From: a virus
DNA length: 21,814 nucleotides
Reading direction: 5' to 3' (one strand)
Virus record (IMG/VR): IMGVR_UViG_3300022208_000029
Coordinates: 1-21,814 of that record
Of this stretch, positions 4,238 to 21,814 are shown one piece after another. The position numbers and the translations under genes are program-made. How positions within the stretch are numbered: position 1 is the first letter of the stretch; every line of letters begins with the position of its first letter. Below the pieces are notes generated by a model. That model had not been told where the DNA came from. It saw only the letters and a list, made by a program, of their open reading frames with translations, and did no database searches.

Positions 4238-4687
4238 TTAATAATCTTCTTTATCCCACTTAGTTTTATTAGTTGATGTTTTAGTCCAGCTTGTGTTTAC
4301 TCCGCTAGGTTTGACCCATCCAGTCGTTATATTAGTAAATTTAGTCCAAGCAGTTCTTAGTCTATATTTTTTTAAAACTATATCAAATCCAGTCATAATG
4401 AATGAACCAACTGAAACTGCTATACAATATCCTTTTGCTAAAACCACGTTTACGCCAGTAACTGTGAACTCTCCGACTGTTACTATCATTGTTATAGCTT
4501 TCTCAAACGCTATATTTATACCAGTCACTGTGAATGTTCCTACCTGAACTAACATACTTATAGCTTTAATTAAACCAGTATCAGTTCCAGTTACAGTAAA
4601 AGCACCGACAATAGCGTTTAGGACATATCCTCCTGTTTTTCTAATTGTTCCGTAAGCCGTTGTGCCATACGCTGATTTTCCATACAT
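4238..4687 (-). CDS. repeat protein with four GxFTVTG units, virion-associated
   Basis: 149 residues. After MYGKSAYGTTAYGTIRKTGG there are four tandem units of about 24 residues, with cores VGAFTVTG, VGTFTVTG, VGEFTVTG and VGSFIMTG, each followed by a hydrophobic run and a Lys. The C-terminus switches to Trp-centred repeats (TAWTKFTN, TGWVKPSG, TSWTKTST, TKWDKED). Similar GxFxLTGxxxxL repeats occur in phage minor virion proteins and suggest a beta-strand stack. The function is unknown. Two internal repeat types in one small protein make it a good candidate for unit gain and loss between strains. Confidence 0.75.
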   Translation of the reverse strand: MYGKSAYGTTAYGTIRKTGGYVLNAIVGAFTVTGTDTGLIKAISMLVQVGTFTVTGINIAFEKAITMIVTVGEFTVTGVNVVLAKGYCIAVSVGSFIMTGFDIVLKKYRLRTAWTKFTNITTGWVKPSGVNTSWTKTSTNKTKWDKEDY

Positions 4688-4724
4688 AGTTTTTAGTTAG
4701 TTTTCTTATTGGGGGTTAAATGGT

Positions 4725-6314
4725 TTAAATTCCATATTCATATTGGAAAGTTAATCTTCTGTTTGTTCCTAATCCAAAATTTGCTTCTGTATATTTTCTG
4801 GCGTAAAGTAATAATCCGGTATTGTGCCATAAGAAACCAGTGAAACCAGCTGCGTCATCTATCATACAAGAATTTGATAAACCAGCCATATCAGATGAAA
4901 TAGCAACTGGTATTTCAATAATGATTGTGTTAGATGCTGTCCCTCCAGTAGTCCCGTAAATTCTAACAAACATTTTTAAAGTTTTCCCAGTTATTTTAAA
5001 TTTTCTAGTAATGATGCTAGTTATAGTAAAAGTCATAGAACCAGATGCCGTTACAACTGGAGTAAAATTAAATAAATCTGGAAACCCTTCTGGTATTTCA
5101 ATCCTAGAATAACTCCAAGTCATAGTATCGTCTGGTATCCAATCGTATAAATCTTGAATTAAGCTAATAGTAGTATCAGTTGAGAAACTTGAACCTATAC
5201 AATAAAAGAAAAAATCCGTTTGATTTAATAAATCAGGAACATCTGAAGCAAAAACTGGAGAGCCAGAAGGTGTTAGTGTGTTTCCGTTTCCGCTGACATC
5301 TGTGTAAACATTTTCTAAAGACCAGCAACCAACTAATCCAGTTTCAGCACCAGTTAGAACTTTAGCCATATTTTGTCTAATCTCTGTGGCGGTTCTGACA
5401 ACATTCCACAGTCTAGTTTCTTTTTGTAATCCATCAGAATAAGAACTTAAAACTGAAATAGCTCCTAACTCAAAATTTGTTGTGCTGTCAAAAATAGAAG
5501 TAGCCAAAGAACTACCAGTCCCAATCGATATTCCATTAACATAAAAAATACAAGTTCCAGCAGAAGCGTTATAAGAAACAGCAAAATGGTAATCTATTCC
5601 TAAAGTTGGGACAAAAGTAACAGCTGCTGTTGTTGCAGCCGTTCCATCAACAGATATGGTAAATTGCAATTGAGAAGAACTGTATCTAAATAAATATGAC
5701 CTTTGACCTGCTGCTCCATATTTTGAGACAATAGGAGCGCTGACATCTGACTCAAATCTCTTCCAACCCTCAATAGTCATATCTCCAGTAATTGAAAGAG
5801 AAGCATTATCAGCTATGTAGGCGAACTGTGAACTTGTTGATTCTAAATCCAAACTATAAACCTGTGCAACAACATCTCTAACTCCTTTTACTTTAACTCC
5901 TTTTTCAAAAATAGAAGTTAAATCTTTTCCTGTAGCGGAGATAGTGTCTTCGTCTGTGATAGAAAAAGTGTCGGATAGCGGAAGCCAGCCAGTTTCAATA
6001 GATGCTAAATCCCGAGCTGTAAACATCCCATAAACTTTCTTATCTCCTGCTGAAAAATTAACTAAAGCCCCAGAGTTTGAAGAAGCATAAACAGTGACAC
6101 GAGTTAAAGTGTCTGGTGTCCCGTCTGTAAAAACTCCTTCTCCTACTTCCCATTCTGTCTCGTCAGCGTTTTCAATACGATATCTAACAGTTGCTCCACT
6201 GGTAAAATCAAAAGGCAAATAGCCATTATCTGCTGAAACTCCTACAAGATTGATTGTTCCTGTTCCTGTGGTTGTTGTGGTGTCTTGACGACTGTCTTTT
6301 CGTTCTAAAGCCAT
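4725..6314 (-). CDS. receptor-binding/tail fibre-like protein with LamG domain
   Basis: 529 residues in three parts. Residues 1-110 carry a phage tail N-terminal domain pattern (TTTTGTGTINLVG, ETEWEVGEGVF, TLTRVTVYASSNSG) that typically anchors fibres. Residues about 153-350 form a concanavalin-like LamG domain: SLDLESTSSQFAYI, MTIEGWKRF, YHFAVSYN, CIFYVNGISIG, ETRLWNVVRTATEI, LVGCWSLEN, YTDVSGNGNTL. The remaining C-terminal part is beta-rich. LamG domains bind glycans, so this is the strongest host-recognition candidate in the window. The start ATG at 6314 follows an A-rich leader without SD. Confidence 0.85.
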   Translation of the reverse strand: MALERKDSRQDTTTTTGTGTINLVGVSADNGYLPFDFTSGATVRYRIENADETEWEVGEGVFTDGTPDTLTRVTVYASSNSGALVNFSAGDKKVYGMFTARDLASIETGWLPLSDTFSITDEDTISATGKDLTSIFEKGVKVKGVRDVVAQVYSLDLESTSSQFAYIADNASLSITGDMTIEGWKRFESDVSAPIVSKYGAAGQRSYLFRYSSSQLQFTISVDGTAATTAAVTFVPTLGIDYHFAVSYNASAGTCIFYVNGISIGTGSSLATSIFDSTTNFELGAISVLSSYSDGLQKETRLWNVVRTATEIRQNMAKVLTGAETGLVGCWSLENVYTDVSGNGNTLTPSGSPVFASDVPDLLNQTDFFFYCIGSSFSTDTTISLIQDLYDWIPDDTMTWSYSRIEIPEGFPDLFNFTPVVTASGSMTFTITSIITRKFKITGKTLKMFVRIYGTTGGTASNTIIIEIPVAISSDMAGLSNSCMIDDAAGFTGFLWHNTGLLLYARKYTEANFGLGTNRRLTFQYEYGI

Positions 6315-7702: not shown

Positions 7703-8023
7703 TTATAGAGTAAAACCTGCTATGTTTGCGTCACATACGCTAGTTCCATCAATCTCAACACTTACTAAAGCTCCAGCAGCTGCTTTTAAAGGAGAACTAA
7801 AGGTGTGTGAGTGTGAGTTATTCCCTGCGGCGGTTGTGGCTAATTGAAGTTGCCAAATTACTGTAGTTCCTTGTTTTACTAACATCAATGCTCCTGCTTT
7901 ATCTGAACTGGCTGCGATATCAGTTATGTAATGAGTTTTTCCAGCTACTCCTGCTTTAGAAGCTGAGGCGGCTGTAGCGTGGGTGGCTGTTACGCTAAAA
8001 GCATCACCGTGTTCTTGTTTCAT
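7703..8023 (-). CDS. small beta-rich virion protein
   Basis: 106 residues, MKQEHGDAFSVTATHATAAS at the start. It carries GKTHYITDIAASSDKAGALM, GTTVIWQLQLATTAAGN and ends SVEIDGTSVCDANIAGFTL. The phrase 'H-Y-I-T-x-I-x-x-S-S-D-K-A-G-x-x-x-L' with a final ANIAGF is a pattern seen in small phage decoration or tail-spike-base proteins. Its start overlaps the end of the upstream coiled-coil gene by 20 bases, so translation is likely coupled. The role is inferred from location in the head/tail cluster. Confidence 0.75.
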   Translation of the reverse strand: MKQEHGDAFSVTATHATAASASKAGVAGKTHYITDIAASSDKAGALMLVKQGTTVIWQLQLATTAAGNNSHSHTFSSPLKAAAGALVSVEIDGTSVCDANIAGFTL

Positions 8024-14086: not shown

Positions 14087-14104
14087 AATCGTTGTTTAAT
14101 ACAT

Positions 14105-14136
14105 AAAAAAAGACCACATCAAAATAAGATGTGGCC
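14105..14136 (-). terminator. intrinsic terminator between groEL and portal
   Basis: On the transcribed strand GGCCACATC, loop TTATTTT, GATGTGGTC, then seven U. The stem is nine pairs including one G-U. It ends the groEL transcript and also lies about 30-60 bases downstream of the start point of the promoter at 14170-14199, before the portal gene. A GACCA stretch upstream (revcomp of 14147-14151) could pair with UGGUC of the descending arm, a weak antiterminator candidate. Confidence 0.85.
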
Positions 14137-14169
14137 TCCAAGTTAATGGTCAGCTATTTAATTACTTAC

Positions 14170-14199
14170 ATTATATCATACCTATCCCTACTTTGTCAA
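14170..14199 (-). promoter_or_regulatory. sigma-70-type promoter for the late structural operon
   Basis: On the minus strand TTGACA (revcomp of 14194-14199), 18-base spacer, TATAAT (revcomp of 14170-14175). The -35 box overlaps the stop region of groEL. Predicted start near 14163. Both hexamers are perfect consensus. Confidence 0.8.
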
Positions 14200-15672
14200 A
14201 TCTTTGTGATTTTCTTCTATAATTCCAGCCTCTACTGTTAGGATTTGATTACCATAACTAAAGGCGTTAGAAAGCGAAGACTTAACTACCTTAGCTGGGT
14301 CTATCACACCAGAAACAAACAAATCTTCCCATTCTCTTTTAACTACATTGTAACCTTTATCGTCCTTATATCCTTTAATAACCTCCGAGAAGTTATCCTC
14401 TCCATTCTCTATAATCTGTTTTAATGGAGCTTTAAGAACTTCTTTAATCAACTTGCTTGACTGTGAACGGTCTTTAATAGTCTCTGATATACGATACAAA
14501 GTCATCCCTCCGCCCTCTACTATCCCGTCATCTATTGCCGACATTACGGCATTCATTGCGTCCTCTAGCTTGTATTTCCTTTCTTTAGCTTCTTGCATAT
14601 TATGCCCTCCTATTCTTAGAGTTGCGATACCGTTTTCTAGCCGTGAGATTTTGTCTTTCAAGTCTGGGTTTTCTTTAAGCTGGCTCTTTAAAGCCTCAAT
14701 CTTCAATCCTATCGCTTCTCTCTGGCTCTCATCTGCTGATACTATTGTTTCTTTACCACTAATTATAATGCTACCAGCACGTCCTAAACTCTCTGGGGTG
14801 AAGTCACTACCTGCCCTAGCTCCTGTTATAAGCTCTAGTTCGTCAAAGTTGTCTGTCTTAACTACACAAGACTGAAACTTTCCTTGTGCTTTGTTGGTTA
14901 GCAAGAAGTTAGTAACATCGTCTGATATTCTATTAGCGAAGATAACCATTGAGTTCTCTCCCGCCTTAAGCATTCCGTCCATTAGTGTAAGTAGTTGGTG
15001 GATTGTGTTGACTGGCTTGTCTAATAACAACACTGGAACATTGCTAAACTCTGCCTTTCCGTTGTCTTGGTTGTTAATGAAGTATGGGGTTATAAATCCA
15101 TCGTCTAACTTAATCCCGTCAATCACTTCTGTCTGAATACCAGTGGTGGAAGATTCAAAGATGTTGAATACTCCGTCCTTGCCAATCTTCTCTACTACCT
15201 CAACGACAACCTCAGCTATCTCTTCGTCTAGTGCGGAATTTAAGGCTACTTTATATAAGTCTCTGCCCTCTGCCTCTTTCTTCTGTTGGTCTATGGTGTT
15301 AACAATGAAGTCTATCTTGCCCTTAATCTCCTCTCTAAGCCCTCGTTGGTCTTTGGTCTTAATCTTCATCATCTCGTTCAAATAAGCCTGCAATAAGACG
15401 ATTGTGGACGTTGTGCCGTCTCCTGCTTCCTCGTTAGTCTTATGCGCTGCTAACTTGGCGAGCATTGCTCCTGTATTCTCTACTACATCATCAAGCTCTA
15501 CTTCCTTGGCAATGTTAATCCCGTCATTGATTATACTCACATACCCGAATGAAGCGTCTCTAATAATAACATTCTTTCCTGCTCCTCCCATTGTTACCTT
15601 AACAATGTTGGCTAGTTTGTCGATTCCAGCCTTTAATCTTTGCTTGGTGTCATCTAGTGTAATTTGTTTCAT
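14188..15672 (-). CDS. groEL: GroEL-type (group I) chaperonin
   Basis: 494 residues, about 50 shorter than E. coli GroEL. The ATPase signature is kept: D50 (NDG, for D52), GDGTTST 84-90 with D85 (for D87), D371 in LED (for D398), GGG 387-389, D458 in GVIDPAKV (for D495). The P-loop-like TLGPKG is altered to TMGGAG (27-32), losing the Pro and Lys. The apical domain (about 180-330) keeps DGFITPYFIN but lacks part of the region after VKTDNFDE. The Gly-Gly-Met tail is absent. It should form a folding chamber with the co-chaperonin encoded at 18476-18730, likely for virion proteins. ATGA overlap with the upstream zinc-finger gene. Confidence 0.95.
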   Translation of the reverse strand: MKQITLDDTKQRLKAGIDKLANIVKVTMGGAGKNVIIRDASFGYVSIINDGINIAKEVELDDVVENTGAMLAKLAAHKTNEEAGDGTTSTIVLLQAYLNEMMKIKTKDQRGLREEIKGKIDFIVNTIDQQKKEAEGRDLYKVALNSALDEEIAEVVVEVVEKIGKDGVFNIFESSTTGIQTEVIDGIKLDDGFITPYFINNQDNGKAEFSNVPVLLLDKPVNTIHQLLTLMDGMLKAGENSMVIFANRISDDVTNFLLTNKAQGKFQSCVVKTDNFDELELITGARAGSDFTPESLGRAGSIIISGKETIVSADESQREAIGLKIEALKSQLKENPDLKDKISRLENGIATLRIGGHNMQEAKERKYKLEDAMNAVMSAIDDGIVEGGGMTLYRISETIKDRSQSSKLIKEVLKAPLKQIIENGEDNFSEVIKGYKDDKGYNVVKREWEDLFVSGVIDPAKVVKSSLSNAFSYGNQILTVEAGIIEENHKDLTK

Positions 15673-18292: not shown

Positions 18293-18479
18293 AATACTTT
18301 AAATATAATTTATCTCCTCTTTGAATAAAATCTCTCTTATGTTCCTCTCTGTAAACATTATTATCTATTCTTCCGTTTTTATCTTTTCTTGTAATTAATT
18401 TCTTTTTACACTCTGCACAATACTCTACTATTACCTGGGCGTTGTCTATTAGTGTCTTGTAGTCGTGGAGGTGTTTCAT
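18279..18479 (-). CDS. small protein with CxxC motif
   Basis: 66 residues, MKHLHDYKTLIDNAQVIVEY then CAECKKKLITRKDKNG. C21-x2-C24 is the only Cys pair; with N-terminal His residues it could hold a metal. The C-terminus is basic and ends YLKYYGNN. It overlaps the co-chaperonin gene by ATGA (18476-18479) and the terminase small subunit by 14 bases. No family is recognised; it may be an adaptor or regulator. Confidence 0.7.
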   Translation of the reverse strand: MKHLHDYKTLIDNAQVIVEYCAECKKKLITRKDKNGRIDNNVYREEHKRDFIQRGDKLYLKYYGNN

Positions 18480-18730
18480 TCTACCGTGCTTAAAACTCCT
18501 TTTTCTTCTAAAAATACATATTCTTTGTCTCCAATAGTCACTATGTCAGTAGCCCACGCCTTAAATAAAACTGTGTCGCCTGTGTGTATGTTTTTAACCT
18601 CTGGCCCAATCTCTAAAACCTCTGCTTGTTCTAATATAATATCTGGGTTAGTGATAACTAAACCGCTTGCTGATTCGTTTTGTTTCTTTATCTCAATTAG
18701 TAATAAGTCTCTTTGTGGTTTAATCTCCAT
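18476..18730 (-). CDS. groES: GroES-type co-chaperonin
   Basis: 84 residues, slightly shorter than cellular GroES (about 95-97). The fold markers are in order: IKPQRDLLLIEI (first strand), a mobile loop about 17-28 (QNESASGLVITN, comparable to EEKTAGGIVL), AEVLEIGPEV, HTGDTVLFKAWAT, IGDKEYVFLEEKGVLSTVE. The hydrophobic LVI edge of the loop would dock on GroEL. Phages such as T4 (gp31) replace host GroES; here the phage also has its own GroEL 2.8 kb downstream in the same orientation. Start overlaps the preceding gene by 11 bases. Confidence 0.9.
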   Translation of the reverse strand: MEIKPQRDLLLIEIKKQNESASGLVITNPDIILEQAEVLEIGPEVKNIHTGDTVLFKAWATDIVTIGDKEYVFLEEKGVLSTVE

Positions 18731-19226: not shown

Positions 19227-19586
19227 TTATCTACTCTCTAAACTTTTTGGTATAAAACTGTCTTCTCTTGTTTTATCGCCTAAATTTATTCTAACTTTAT
19301 ATCCTAGTTTTTTCATTAAATGTATAAATTCTTCCGATACTCCGATGTAAGAATGCCCTGGTATATCTCCTTTGTGATTTCCGCAACAGCAACCAGTAGT
19401 TATAATTCCTTTATCCCAGAGATATAATAGTTCATCAGTTAGACATTTATCAAATCCGATTAGCTTACGAGATGATTCCCAAGGTGGTTTAGCACAAACT
19501 TGACATTGGTATTCTTGAACTTTAGATTTTCTACAAGGATATTTCATAAGCTTATAGCAGTCATCGACCAATCGGGTCGACACCAC
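19227..19586 (-). CDS. Cys-rich hypothetical phage protein
   Basis: 119 residues. A Cys-rich N-terminal region (YPCRKSKVQEYQCQVCAKPPWE) precedes KCLTDELLYLWDKGIITTGC and CCGNHKGDIPGHSYIGV, ending in SEEFIHLMKKLGYK. The GIxTTGCCCGH-like motif with a following YIGV is a recurring signature of uncharacterised phage proteins. Metal binding is likely from at least six Cys and two His. The start is GTG at 19584-19586; ATG at 19545-19547 (MKYPCRKS) is a credible alternative. It lies 9 bases after the deoxyribosyltransferase-like gene. Confidence 0.7.
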   Translation of the reverse strand: MVSTRLVDDCYKLMKYPCRKSKVQEYQCQVCAKPPWESSRKLIGFDKCLTDELLYLWDKGIITTGCCCGNHKGDIPGHSYIGVSEEFIHLMKKLGYKVRINLGDKTREDSFIPKSLESR

Positions 19587-19595
19587 CGTTATATA

Positions 19596-20042
19596 CTATC
19601 TAATAATTCTTTGCAAGGCTTCTTCAATAGTATCTGCTTGTTCAACCTTATATCTCTCACAAGTTATATCAACATTTCCTTTCCGATAAAATCCTTCAGG
19701 GCAAACAACAATCATCTTCCCAGTTCCAGCAAATAAACCTAACTCTAATAATGAAATTGTGGCTTTAGTGTTTGGGTCAAAATACATTAAAATCTTATCA
19801 CACCCTTCTTGAGCTTCTAATTCCCACTCAACCTGCTCTCTAAATTGTTTATTGTCTTTAGTTTGTTTCCAAGATGTATCCCAGTCGTCTCTCCTGGGGT
19901 TTAATATAGTCCAGTCTGTGTCTTTTAAAAGTCTTTCCACCTTCTCTTGCCAGTTTTCAGCCTTCCCCATTTCTATTGAGCCAGCTAAAAAAATACTTCT
20001 GCTATCTAAAATAAATTTACTTGGTGGTTTTATTATTTTCAT
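19596..20042 (-). CDS. nucleoside 2-deoxyribosyltransferase-like enzyme
   Basis: 148 residues matching the family I know as Nuc_deoxyri_tr2 (PF15891). In order: FLAGSIEMGKAENWQ 18-32, NPRRDDWDTSW 48-58, QVEWELEAQE 70-79, MYFDPNTKATISLLELGLF 86-104 with E100 as likely nucleophile, PEGFYRKGNVDI 115-126. It should exchange or hydrolyse the N-glycosidic bond of deoxyribonucleosides or their phosphates, altering nucleotide pools or salvaging host bases. It is the first conventional enzyme after the structured leader. The leader just before ATG is A-rich without SD. Confidence 0.88.
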   Translation of the reverse strand: MKIIKPPSKFILDSRSIFLAGSIEMGKAENWQEKVERLLKDTDWTILNPRRDDWDTSWKQTKDNKQFREQVEWELEAQEGCDKILMYFDPNTKATISLLELGLFAGTGKMIVVCPEGFYRKGNVDITCERYKVEQADTIEEALQRIIR

Positions 20043-20193
20043 GATTTTTTTTAAGTTTCTCGGGACTTTTGAGCAATTAGAGACACCTGTAAATTGAATT
20101 TTGCATTTTTGTACTAATTTTGTGGATTTTTCTTCAGGTTTTTGGTGTTTCTCGGTATATTTTGGAGTTTCTTTGAGAAAAAAGCGGTCATAT

Positions 20194-20250
20194 ATTTTAA
20201 AGTTGTTTCCCTGATATTGAGGCTCACCGATTACAATATCACTTTAAAAT
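20194..20250 (-). ncRNA. long composite hairpin, domain III
   Basis: ATTTTAAAGT (forward 20194-20203) pairs with ACTTTAAAAT (20241-20250), ten pairs. Immediately inside, GATATTG (20213-20219) pairs with CAATATC (20234-20240), seven pairs. A one-sided bulge of nine bases separates the helices. No gene lies here, about 150 bases upstream of the deoxyribosyltransferase-like gene. Confidence 0.6.
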
Positions 20251-20516
20251 TCATTTTACTTCGCATTTAGAACGAAGGGTTTGAAGATTTGACGGGTGGT
20301 TACGGTCTAGCGAATACCCACAAAACTTTCTGTTATGAACCATAAGACTTAATCCGTTGCTGTATCGAAGTTACAACGTAGCTTATGTAGCTGGTATAGA
20401 TATACTTTAGTGTCCTGCCCGCTCGATACCACACTATCTAAAATGTGGTCACTGCTTACACAGTACAAGCAAGACACTAAAAAATATCTACAACCTATTA
20501 TGTTTGAATCAATGAA
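20251..20516 (-). ncRNA. structured noncoding segment with 20-bp helix
   Basis: Continuation of the leftward leader. A 13-bp helix (20406-20418 with 20469-20481, one G-U) is extended by seven more pairs TAGATAT/ATATCTA (20397-20403 with 20484-20490) across a small internal loop. Inside is hairpin ACCACA/TGTGGT (20428-20433, 20444-20449). Smaller hairpins: CGTTG/CAACG (20355-20359, 20374-20378), TTATG/CATAA (20333-20337, 20341-20345), CTTCG/CGAAG (20259-20263, 20273-20277). No gene over 20 residues in either strand. It may be one molecule with the 20677-21067 domain. Confidence 0.55.
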
Positions 20517-20666
20517 CTACCGCAACATACTTGAAATAAACATTATCGAAAAAAATGAATAAAAAACTAAAAGAAATAGAAACAATTTTAATTTAGTTAT
20601 CTCGGATGCTTGTTTATAAATAACAAACGATTTATCTTCGGTTGTTAATTTTTCTAAGTCTTCCAT
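20517..20666 (-). CDS. 49-residue small membrane protein
   Basis: ATG at 20664-20666, TAG at 20517-20519. A charged N-terminal half (MEDLEKLTTEDKSFVIYKQA) is followed by a long hydrophobic helix (KLFLFLLVFYSFFSIMFISS) and a short basic end MLR. The composition is protein-like, unlike the neighbouring noncoding sequence. The leader GTAAATAAACATAAGACT is A-rich, as for other genes here. It sits between two structured RNA regions, so its translation may be controlled by the RNA fold: the long-range helix 20677-20689/20843-20855 ends ten bases upstream of its start. Role unknown. Confidence 0.6.
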   Translation of the reverse strand: MEDLEKLTTEDKSFVIYKQASEITKLKLFLFLLVFYSFFSIMFISSMLR

Positions 20667-20676
20667 AGTCTTATGT

Positions 20677-21067
20677 TTATTTACTAACAGCTACAAATAA
20701 AGTTTTTAGGTGCTTGACGGATTAGCGCCGAACTCCAGAAATCACTCTGGCAACCTACAGGCCTTCCACTTTCGGTCTTTATTGAGTGGAGATTAAACCA
20801 CTCTCAACCTCTGATTACGGAGAGATAACCGTTACTTGTATGTGTTAGTAAATAATATCTATGCTCTCAACCCATTAACCGATAGAGTTAACAGTTAAGA
20901 GCAAAATAATAATTTCCAATCTCGACAGATTGAAAGCATAGATATTAAAGAGCCAAAATCCACATATCTCTATCTTTCTCTGTTTCTGTGAACACCCGCT
21001 CGGTGTTTGGTGAATGGGGTCGGAGCTCGAAAGCGTTTAGGCAACTTTTGGAGAACTTCTTAGTTCT
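20677..21067 (-). ncRNA. candidate large ornate phage RNA, 5' domains
   Basis: No gene, but a strong promoter at 21073-21100 and many helices. 5' hairpin AGAACT/AGTTCT (21052-21067); long-range CCAAAA/TTTTGG (20953-20958, 21046-21051); hairpin AACACC/GGTGTT (20991-21007) whose loop GAGCG could contact CGCTT upstream. Junction: 13-bp stem 20853-20865/20935-20947, arm CAATCT/AGATTG (20917-20932), arm of nine pairs 20863-20871/20894-20902. A second domain closed by 13 bp (20677-20689/20843-20855) holds GAGTGG/CCACTC, CCAGA/TCTGG and crossing helices (20707-20713/20750-20757 and 20728-20732/20771-20775). The class is not identified; phage GOLLD and ROOL RNAs are comparable in size and setting. 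Confidence 0.65.
21033..21047 (-). repeat. 15-base leader motif, copy A
   Basis: Minus-strand AAGTTGCCTAAACGC in the leader just after the first hairpin of the leftward transcript. Copies B (15921-15935) and C (19138-19152) share 13 and 11 positions. Confidence 0.5.
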
Positions 21068-21072
21068 AACTA

Positions 21073-21100
21073 ATTATACCATACCATATAGAATTGTCAA
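21073..21100 (-). promoter_or_regulatory. sigma-70-type promoter, leftward
   Basis: TTGACA (revcomp of 21095-21100), 16-base spacer, TATAAT (revcomp of 21073-21078), start near 21066. The first bases form a 6-bp hairpin. It would drive the structured RNA and perhaps the genes beyond. Confidence 0.8.
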
Positions 21101-21161
21101 TAAATTATTGGCTTATCTTAGCTAATGTTTAAAGAAATTAAATACTTATTGCAATTTACTA

Positions 21162-21189
21162 TTGACAAATTTTAAATATCTGCTAGAAT
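21162..21189 (+). promoter_or_regulatory. sigma-70-type promoter, rightward
   Basis: TTGACA 21162-21167, 16-base spacer, TAGAAT 21184-21189, start near 21196. It diverges from the leftward promoter about 60 bases away and drives the HTH gene and tRNA-like RNA. Confidence 0.75.
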
Positions 21190-21200
21190 TAGTATATCAA

Positions 21201-21248
21201 GTTAGGGAAGCGAGAAAGTTGCGTTATACGAACTTCCGCTTATCTAAC
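21201..21248 (+). promoter_or_regulatory. 5' UTR stem-loop of the HTH transcript
   Basis: Three stacked 5-bp helices: GTTAG/CTAAC (21201-21205, 21244-21248), AAGCG/CGCTT (21208-21212, 21237-21241) and AAGTT/AACTT (21216-21220, 21231-21235), with a loop at 21221-21230. It begins a few bases after the predicted start point and ends 23 bases before the HTH ATG. It may protect the 5' end, bind the HTH protein or hold back translation. Confidence 0.6.
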
Positions 21249-21271
21249 AAAGTAAGAATTAAAACAAAACA

Positions 21272-21454
21272 ATGACACAAAAGGACAAACTCCTACAACT
21301 GTTACAAAAAGGCTCTTGGGTAACAGTTCAACAAATGCAGACAATAGCTTGGAGGTACGGGGCAAGACTACACGATTTAAGAGTTGAAGGTTATGAGTTC
21401 GAGAAAAGAAAGCAAAAGAACTCAAGACTAGAAGAGTGGAGATTAATAAAGTAA
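21272..21454 (+). CDS. helix-turn-helix DNA-binding protein
   Basis: 60 residues, MTQKDKLLQLLQKGSWVTVQ, then QMQTIAWRYGARLHDLRVEG and YEFEKRKQKNSRLEEWRLIK. This is the phage HTH pattern I know as HTH_39: a winged-helix-like unit where 'ARLHDLR-x-x-G-Y' is the recognition helix and wing. In cells such small proteins repress early promoters; the divergent promoters 100 bases upstream are the obvious targets. It is the only gene of normal size on the plus strand. The A-rich leader AGAATTAAAACAAAACA lacks an SD. Confidence 0.85.
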   Translation: MTQKDKLLQLLQKGSWVTVQQMQTIAWRYGARLHDLRVEGYEFEKRKQKNSRLEEWRLIK

Positions 21455-21463
21455 CGCACCACA

Positions 21464-21529
21464 ATGACAACCATAATAACAGTAGCAATAATATTTTTAT
21501 TCGGGTTGTTCACAGTTTTGACAGCTTAG
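21464..21529 (+). CDS. candidate 21-residue hydrophobic micro-ORF
   Basis: ATG 21464-21466, TAG 21527-21529. Product MTTIITVAIIFLFGLFTVLTA, almost all hydrophobic, one membrane helix with no charged residue. It begins 10 bases after the HTH stop. It may be a membrane peptide of toxin-like or small phage type, or simply a chance AT-rich frame. No RBS distinguishes it; the leader CACCACA is A-rich only in part. Confidence 0.3.
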   Translation: MTTIITVAIIFLFGLFTVLTA

Positions 21530-21554
21530 TACATTAAAAACTAATTACTTAAAT

Positions 21555-21745
21555 GGGGAGATGGCGGAATAGGTAAACGCTACGCTGTAGATTACATAAG
21601 TCCAGTGCACATATAGCTGGGAAACAAGCCTAAGAAAGTAATCCTGCAAGGTGACTATACGAGTAATCGCATTGGAGTTTCATTTAAAGATGCACTACGC
21701 GATTTATTGTGTACGAAACTCTCTCGGCAAATCCTTACTCTCCCC
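21555..21745 (+). ncRNA. tRNA-like structured RNA, 191 bases
   Basis: The 5' half copies a type II tRNA: acceptor-like GGGGAGA, TG, D-stem GCG/CGC with GAATAGGTAAA loop including GG and the usual A. The 3' end TCTCCCC (21739-21745) pairs perfectly with GGGGAGA. There is no T-loop and no normal anticodon stem, although a CTGTAGA stretch resembles a Tyr(GTA) loop. Between lie 150 bases with a pseudoknot: AATCGC/GCGATT (21665-21670, 21699-21704) crossing GAGTTTC/GAAACTC (21675-21681, 21715-21721). GATTAC (21590-21595) can pair with either GTAATC (21638-21643 or 21663-21668). It is probably a processed ncRNA; a tRNA with insertion is the alternative. Confidence 0.45.
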
Positions 21746-21782
21746 CTTTAGGTAATTAGATTAATTAATTAACCCCACCCCT

Positions 21783-21814
21783 ATGAACAGAAATGAAAAA
21801 AGCCTGCGTAATAT
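21783..21814 (+). CDS. possible 5' end of a gene cut by the window edge
   Basis: ATG 21783 opens MNRNEKSLRN and ATG 21793 opens MKKACVI in another frame; both run to the edge. Too short to judge. Low confidence. Confidence 0.25.
   Translation, partial: MNRNEKSLRN

What the first reader, a model, noticed from the sequence alone, without database searches (positions are those of the whole stretch)
20677..21067. Large ornate structured RNA at the head of the leftward transcript
Almost 400 bases without a credible gene contain helices far beyond chance: a 13-bp stem closing a junction with arms of six and nine pairs, a second domain closed by another perfect 13-bp helix at 20677-20689/20843-20855, and a strong promoter right before the first base. 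Large phage RNAs such as GOLLD and ROOL have this size, phage setting and tRNA proximity, from general knowledge; whether this is one of them or a new class is unknown.
Basis: partly seen in the sequence, partly recalled or inferred. Interest (0 to 1): 0.88.

Follow-up and report, generated by a model that had tools for sequence, protein, structure and literature searches.

The report
Structured leader RNA of phage operon
A bacterial virus has a long untranslated stretch right after a near-perfect promoter that folds, as RNA, into three strong and separate hairpin modules; it is best read as the structured start of a viral messenger RNA and matches no known large phage RNA, but no relatives were found to prove its shape or its job.

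Summary
On the minus strand a 12/12 extended -10 promoter (21100-21073) is followed by RNA that folds far better than shuffled sequence. The structure is not one 390-nt ornate fold but three separate modules: B (20853-20947, z -6.8), A (20677-20855, multi-branched, closed by the reported 13-bp helix, z -4.5 to -5.0) and C (20393-20495, z -9.0). C is the strongest and lies outside the reported interval. The first 115 nt and a 49-codon ORF between A and C are unstructured. G-U pairs in B and C point to minus-strand RNA, not a DNA palindrome.

The GOLLD/ROOL comparison is not supported: no Rfam match, no adjacent tRNA (nearest 12 kb away), no terminator to make it free-standing. No homologue was found by any search, so covariation could not be tested.

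Related phages repeatedly place structured modules shortly before start codons, some behind the same promoter type; module A ends 10 nt before the 49-codon ORF. I read the region as the structured 5' leader of the leftward operon, probably a processing, stability or initiation element with RNase III-sized stems (0.5). A new free-standing phage RNA remains possible (about 0.2).

The parts
21073..21100 (-). Promoter P1: TTGACA-16-TATAAT with TG before the -10, predicted start near 21066
   Evidence: 12 of 12 consensus; the only other 12/12 site in the window is before the portal gene, where relatives have one too
21098..21110 (.). CAATAAATTATTG palindrome overlapping the -35 box; possible operator
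   Evidence: read directly from the sequence; significance not tested; operator role is inference
20950..21066 (-). Unstructured start of the transcript
   Evidence: z +1.0
20853..20947 (-). Module B: up to 23-pair stem or three-way junction, several near-equal conformations
   Evidence: z -6.75
20677..20855 (-). Module A: 13-bp + 9-bp closing stem with about five arms; ends 10 nt before the ORF at 20666
20517..20666 (-). 49-codon ORF (MEDLEKLTTEDKSF...), possible small membrane protein; uncertain
   Evidence: open frame; weak hexamer score; no relatives
20393..20495 (-). Module C: 8 + 18 bp stem closing two hairpins of 5 and 8 bp; strongest structure
   Evidence: z -8.99, pair probabilities 0.97-0.99
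20190..20345 (-). Weakly supported hairpins (20277-20259, 20324-20288, 20250-20194) after module C
   Evidence: z -0.8 and -1.6 for the two pieces
19596..20042 (-). Nucleoside 2-deoxyribosyltransferase-like gene, first sure gene of the leftward transcript
   Evidence: Pfam PF15891, E 4e-39
21162..21189 (+). Divergent promoter, 11 of 12 with TG
21272..21454 (+). HTH_39 winged-helix protein, candidate regulator
   Evidence: Pfam PF14090, 21.8 bits against cut-off 21.3

Best explanation
The region is the long structured 5' leader of the phage's leftward operon, not a separate GOLLD-like RNA. RNA polymerase starts at P1 (about 21066), possibly under control of the divergent HTH_39 protein, and reads leftward without an intrinsic terminator into the 2-deoxyribosyltransferase gene and beyond. 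The RNA folds into three independent modules: B and A before a small ORF (A ends 10 nt before its ATG), C before the next genes. I propose that the long stems of B and C (18 to about 26 pairs, the size of RNase III substrates) are processing and stability elements that cut and protect the polycistronic message, and that module A holds the start region of the small ORF in a defined state in a phage that hardly uses Shine-Dalgarno sequences. Shown by computation: promoter match, modules, strand preference, no terminator match, recurrence of structured leaders in relatives. Inferred: transcription, RNase III cleavage, effect on translation.
For: Consensus promoter directly upstream, of a type found again before portal genes in this phage family. 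Modules significant one by one, with flat stretches between them. G-U pairs only on the minus strand in B and C. No terminator-like site between P1 and the downstream gene. Related phages carry long-stem, mostly branched elements ending 7-23 nt before start codons and strongly folded leaders behind similar promoters. Few Shine-Dalgarno sequences: 4 of 27 genes.
Against: No homologue, so no covariation. The small ORF has a weak coding score and no relatives. Several of the relatives' stems end in U-tracts and are terminators, unlike B, A and C, and one pair lies on the strand opposite to the genes. RNase III cleavage is not tested. Some non-coding RNAs are also cut out of longer transcripts.
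Confidence: 0.5

Rival explanations
1. A free-standing large non-coding phage RNA of a new class (B + A, possibly through C), made at high level from P1 and acting as an RNA scaffold or RNP; it would work like GOLLD or ROOL without belonging to them.
For: Size (0.4-0.9 kb), strength of folding, multi-branched module A, perfect promoter, few ORFs: 15% of the kilobase upstream of the 2-deoxyribosyltransferase gene is covered by ORFs of 50 codons or more, the lowest of the loci compared.
Against: Unstructured stretches between the modules, no terminator, no tRNA neighbours, no Rfam match, no homologues.
Confidence: 0.2
2. An antitermination or attenuation leader: nascent RNA modules act on RNA polymerase (as HK022 put RNA does), or alternative pairings in B switch downstream expression.
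For: Location directly after a phage promoter; B has mutually exclusive pairings within about 1.3 kcal/mol; portal leaders of the same family hold terminators right after the promoter. HK022 put RNA is a cis element that suppresses pausing and termination of early phage genes (PMC9378689, abstract).
Against: No U-tract follows B, A or C, and no similarity to put was found in Rfam; near-equal alternative folds are common in AT-rich RNA.
Confidence: 0.15
3. A DNA-level element (replication origin, recombination or packaging site) whose palindromes merely look like RNA stems.
For: Large inverted repeats in a divergent intergenic region; module A folds almost equally well on both strands.
Against: B and C keep G-U pairs on the minus strand only; C has z -8.99 minus against -5.47 plus; the best plus-strand helix (29) is inside the shuffle range.
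Confidence: 0.1

Closest known systems
RNase III processing hairpins in phage polycistronic mRNA, as in the T7 early region (from general knowledge)
   Same: Long intergenic stems of about two helical turns in a phage operon, just before genes
   Different: Here branched and clustered in one leader; cleavage not shown; no sequence relation tested
GOLLD RNA (RF02032) and ROOL RNA (RF03087)
   Same: Phage setting, several hundred nucleotides, extensive predicted folding
   Different: No model match, no tRNA array, separate modules, no terminator, no covariation evidence
HK022 put RNA (antitermination leader; PMC9378689, abstract seen)
   Same: Structured RNA directly after a phage promoter at the head of an operon
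   Different: put is described as a cis RNA element acting on RNA polymerase; here the modules begin about 120 nt into the transcript, are larger, and no action on polymerase is shown
Portal-gene leaders of the same phage family
   Same: Same promoter type; strongly folded leader ending shortly before a start codon
   Different: Sequence unrelated to B, A and C; contains an intrinsic terminator and a conserved CUGACC motif

Membership tests
GOLLD (RF02032) | Match to the covariance model above gathering score | tested here: not met
   No match at E up to 10; control genomes rang only below the cut-off, so sensitivity is unproven
GOLLD (RF02032) | Phage or prophage setting, often near tRNA genes | tested here: not met
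   Phage setting met; only tRNA found is 12 kb away, so the tRNA part fails
GOLLD (RF02032) | RNA-only cage assembly | not testable with these tools
   needs cryo-EM (as in PMC12286853)
ROOL (RF03087) | Match to the covariance model above gathering score | tested here: not met
   No match; the control rang nowhere
OLE, HEARO and other Rfam classes | Match to an Rfam 15 model | tested here: not met
   matches listed are all far below gathering score
New structured RNA class | Homologues with compensatory base changes | not tested
   No homologue found
Structured phage mRNA leader with RNase III-type stems | Promoter upstream and no terminator before the downstream gene | tested here: met
   (consensus scan only)
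Structured phage mRNA leader with RNase III-type stems | Double-stranded stem of about 20 pairs or more in the RNA | tested here: met
   23 pairs in one state of B; 8 + 18 pairs around one mismatch in C
Structured phage mRNA leader with RNase III-type stems | Cleavage by RNase III | not testable with these tools
   needs an experiment
Intrinsic terminator or attenuator | G+C-rich hairpin followed directly by a U-tract | tested here: not met
   No terminator-like site in 19500-21814

The most novel reading that the evidence does not exclude
B, A and C are domains of one new class of large phage non-coding RNA (about 0.4-0.9 kb), abundant, made from its own near-perfect promoter and unrelated to GOLLD, ROOL, OLE or HEARO.
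Probability: 0.2. Interest if true: 0.75.

Novelty: new member of a known kind. Interest (0 to 1): 0.38.

Why it matters
It shows strong, strand-specific RNA structure in a phage group with no close relative among the GenBank phages searched, and suggests that these phages put heavily folded leaders behind one recognisable promoter type in genomes that scarcely use Shine-Dalgarno signals. If the modules prove to be a conserved stand-alone RNA, they would add a class to the few known giant phage RNAs.

Tried and rejected
(1) GOLLD, ROOL, HEARO, OLE: no model match. (2) A 28-nt match (86%) in relative G005 at 7826-7853, sharing AGTAAATAATATC, looked like a homologue of the A/B junction; but the relative's element folds better on the strand that corresponds to the window's plus strand (-86.9 against -60.1), and a viral-contig scan for the motif gave, besides that same contig, four matches in contigs with no like structure around them. 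Rejected as homology. (3) Long noncoding-looking gaps in G004 and G010: partly missed genes and unrelated sequence. (4) Covariance models made from the single window sequence of A, B and C over 437 kb of window and related contigs: only the window itself; A and C over 36 other phage records: one chance-level match of 7.7 bits. (5) Terminase relatives in GTDB genomes, to find the host: none. (6) The 49-codon ORF as a conserved gene: no relatives. (7) The intergenic long stems of relatives as the same element class: rejected as a strict class because several end in U-tracts and are terminators; kept only as a shared habit.

Full report
SETTING. The window is a 21.8-kb virus record (related records come from IMG/VR). 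It carries a GpA-type terminase, a P22-like portal, GroEL, GroES and a nucleoside 2-deoxyribosyltransferase-like gene, with nearly all genes on the minus strand. No close relative exists among 50,697 GenBank phages: the best listed terminase matches are about 25% identical. Relatives at 45-91% terminase identity were fetched from IMG/VR. Only 4 of 27 scored genes have a Shine-Dalgarno-like sequence.

PROMOTER. TTGACA-16-TATAAT with TG before the -10 lies at 21100-21073 on the minus strand, 12 of 12 matches. It is credible because the only other 12/12 site in the window is just before the portal gene, and relatives G003, G006, G010 and G012 have 12/12 sites in the same place before their portal-sized gene. 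A divergent 11/12 promoter leads to an HTH_39 protein. A 13-base palindrome at 21098-21110 overlaps the -35 box and may be an operator (direct reading; inference).

STRUCTURE. The reported 13-bp helix at 20855-20843/20689-20677 is exact. Over 20040-21067 the two best helices (scores 47 and 37) exceed the maximum of 200 shuffles (33), and the third-best (28) exceeds every third-best of the shuffles. Cut into pieces, the signal lies in three modules: B 20853-20947 (z -6.75), A 20677-20855 (z -4.45; -4.98) and C 20393-20495 (z -8.99). The first 115 nt (z +1.0) and the ORF between A and C (z +0.6) are flat, and the stretches after C are weak. So the reported interval holds two modules plus an unstructured lead-in, and the strongest module was missed.

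STRAND. In the main stems of B (23 pairs, 4 G-U) and C (18 + 8 pairs, 6 G-U) every pair that is not Watson-Crick is G-U on the minus strand; on the plus strand these would be A-C mismatches. If strand did not matter this would have a chance of about 2^-10, but the helices were picked on the minus strand, so that figure is too optimistic. The better check is that the best plus-strand helix scores 29, inside the shuffle range, and that C folds at z -8.99 minus against -5.47 plus. Module A does not discriminate.

ALTERNATIVE FOLDS IN B. The 3' strand of B can pair with 20947-20925 (23 pairs) or with 20903-20893, and the 5' strand can pair upstream; these states lie within about 1.3 kcal/mol. This may be a switch or only loose AT-rich pairing.

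HOMOLOGUES. None was found: blastn in phages and plasmids (only short weak Spiroplasma matches), related contigs, back-translated seeds in viral contigs and in GTDB genomes, a motif scan, and covariance models made from the window sequence alone in 437 kb and in 36 further records. The seed searches reach only close relatives. The two closest relatives (91% terminase, L002 and L003) are cut off before this region, so absence there says nothing. Covariation remains untested.

RELATIVES AS CONTEXT. Relatives carry intergenic long-stem, mostly branched structures of about 80-106 nt ending 7-23 nt before a start codon, for example G013 32948-33038, G010 34711-34816 and G005 7840-7927. Several also have strongly folded portal leaders behind the same promoter type. 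Module A ends 10 nt before the 49-codon ORF. Several of the relatives' stems end in U-tracts and are terminators, so this is a shared habit and not proof of one element class.

MECHANISM. Most likely (0.5) this is a structured 5' leader of the leftward operon with RNase III-sized stems and a folded initiation region. Rivals: a new free-standing RNA (0.2), an antitermination or attenuation leader (0.15), a DNA element (0.1). Transcription, cleavage and effect on translation are inferred; the link to RNase III rests on stem length and on general knowledge of T7-type processing sites.

VERDICT. A real and strong structural signal, better delimited here than in the finding. The GOLLD/ROOL parallel is not supported, the function is inferred, and evolutionary proof is missing.

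Noticed in passing
window 14087-14205 (minus) and portal leaders of G001-G006: A 12/12 (or near) extended -10 promoter, a conserved CUGACCGUWAAAUCGGAGG-like motif and an intrinsic terminator lie just before the portal gene in the window and its relatives; the terminator stem changes sequence but stays paired. Looks like a conserved attenuator or small RNA of this phage family.
   Followed up: partly
G003 22539-22628 and G004 4685-4790 (L092, L093): Both carry an extra module AAGGGAGTAATATAAAA...TATTCCTCCCTTAGAAA with the same closing stem and different inner hairpins, ending just before the portal ATG.
   Followed up: partly
window 21557-21757 (+): Begins like a tRNA-Leu (acceptor GGGGAGA, canonical D-arm) and ends with the matching TCTCCCC, with an extra 100 nt or so inside and no good T-arm. 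By eye only; the default ARAGORN run and Rfam do not call it, and relaxed ARAGORN runs give only implausible matches.
   Followed up: partly
window 14188-15672 and 18476-18730: The phage encodes both a GroEL and a GroES homologue, in separate places among head and packaging genes.
   Followed up: no
window genes; relatives G003-G005, G010: Very few Shine-Dalgarno-like sequences (4 of 27 in the window, 2 of 36 in G003), A-rich upstreams; hints at a host that initiates translation without them.
   Followed up: no
window 20970-21044 (minus): A 24-codon TTG-initiated ORF rich in arginine (MPKRFRAPTPFTKHRAGVHRNRER) in the unstructured start of the leader, ending inside a segment that can pair with the 5' strand of module B; a possible leader peptide or chance.
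   Followed up: no
G013 27864-27949 and G008 27559-27641: Nearly identical 18-20 bp branched hairpin followed by U7 on the strand opposite to the genes, just ahead of a start codon; in IMG/VR the exact motif was found only in these two contigs.
   Followed up: partly
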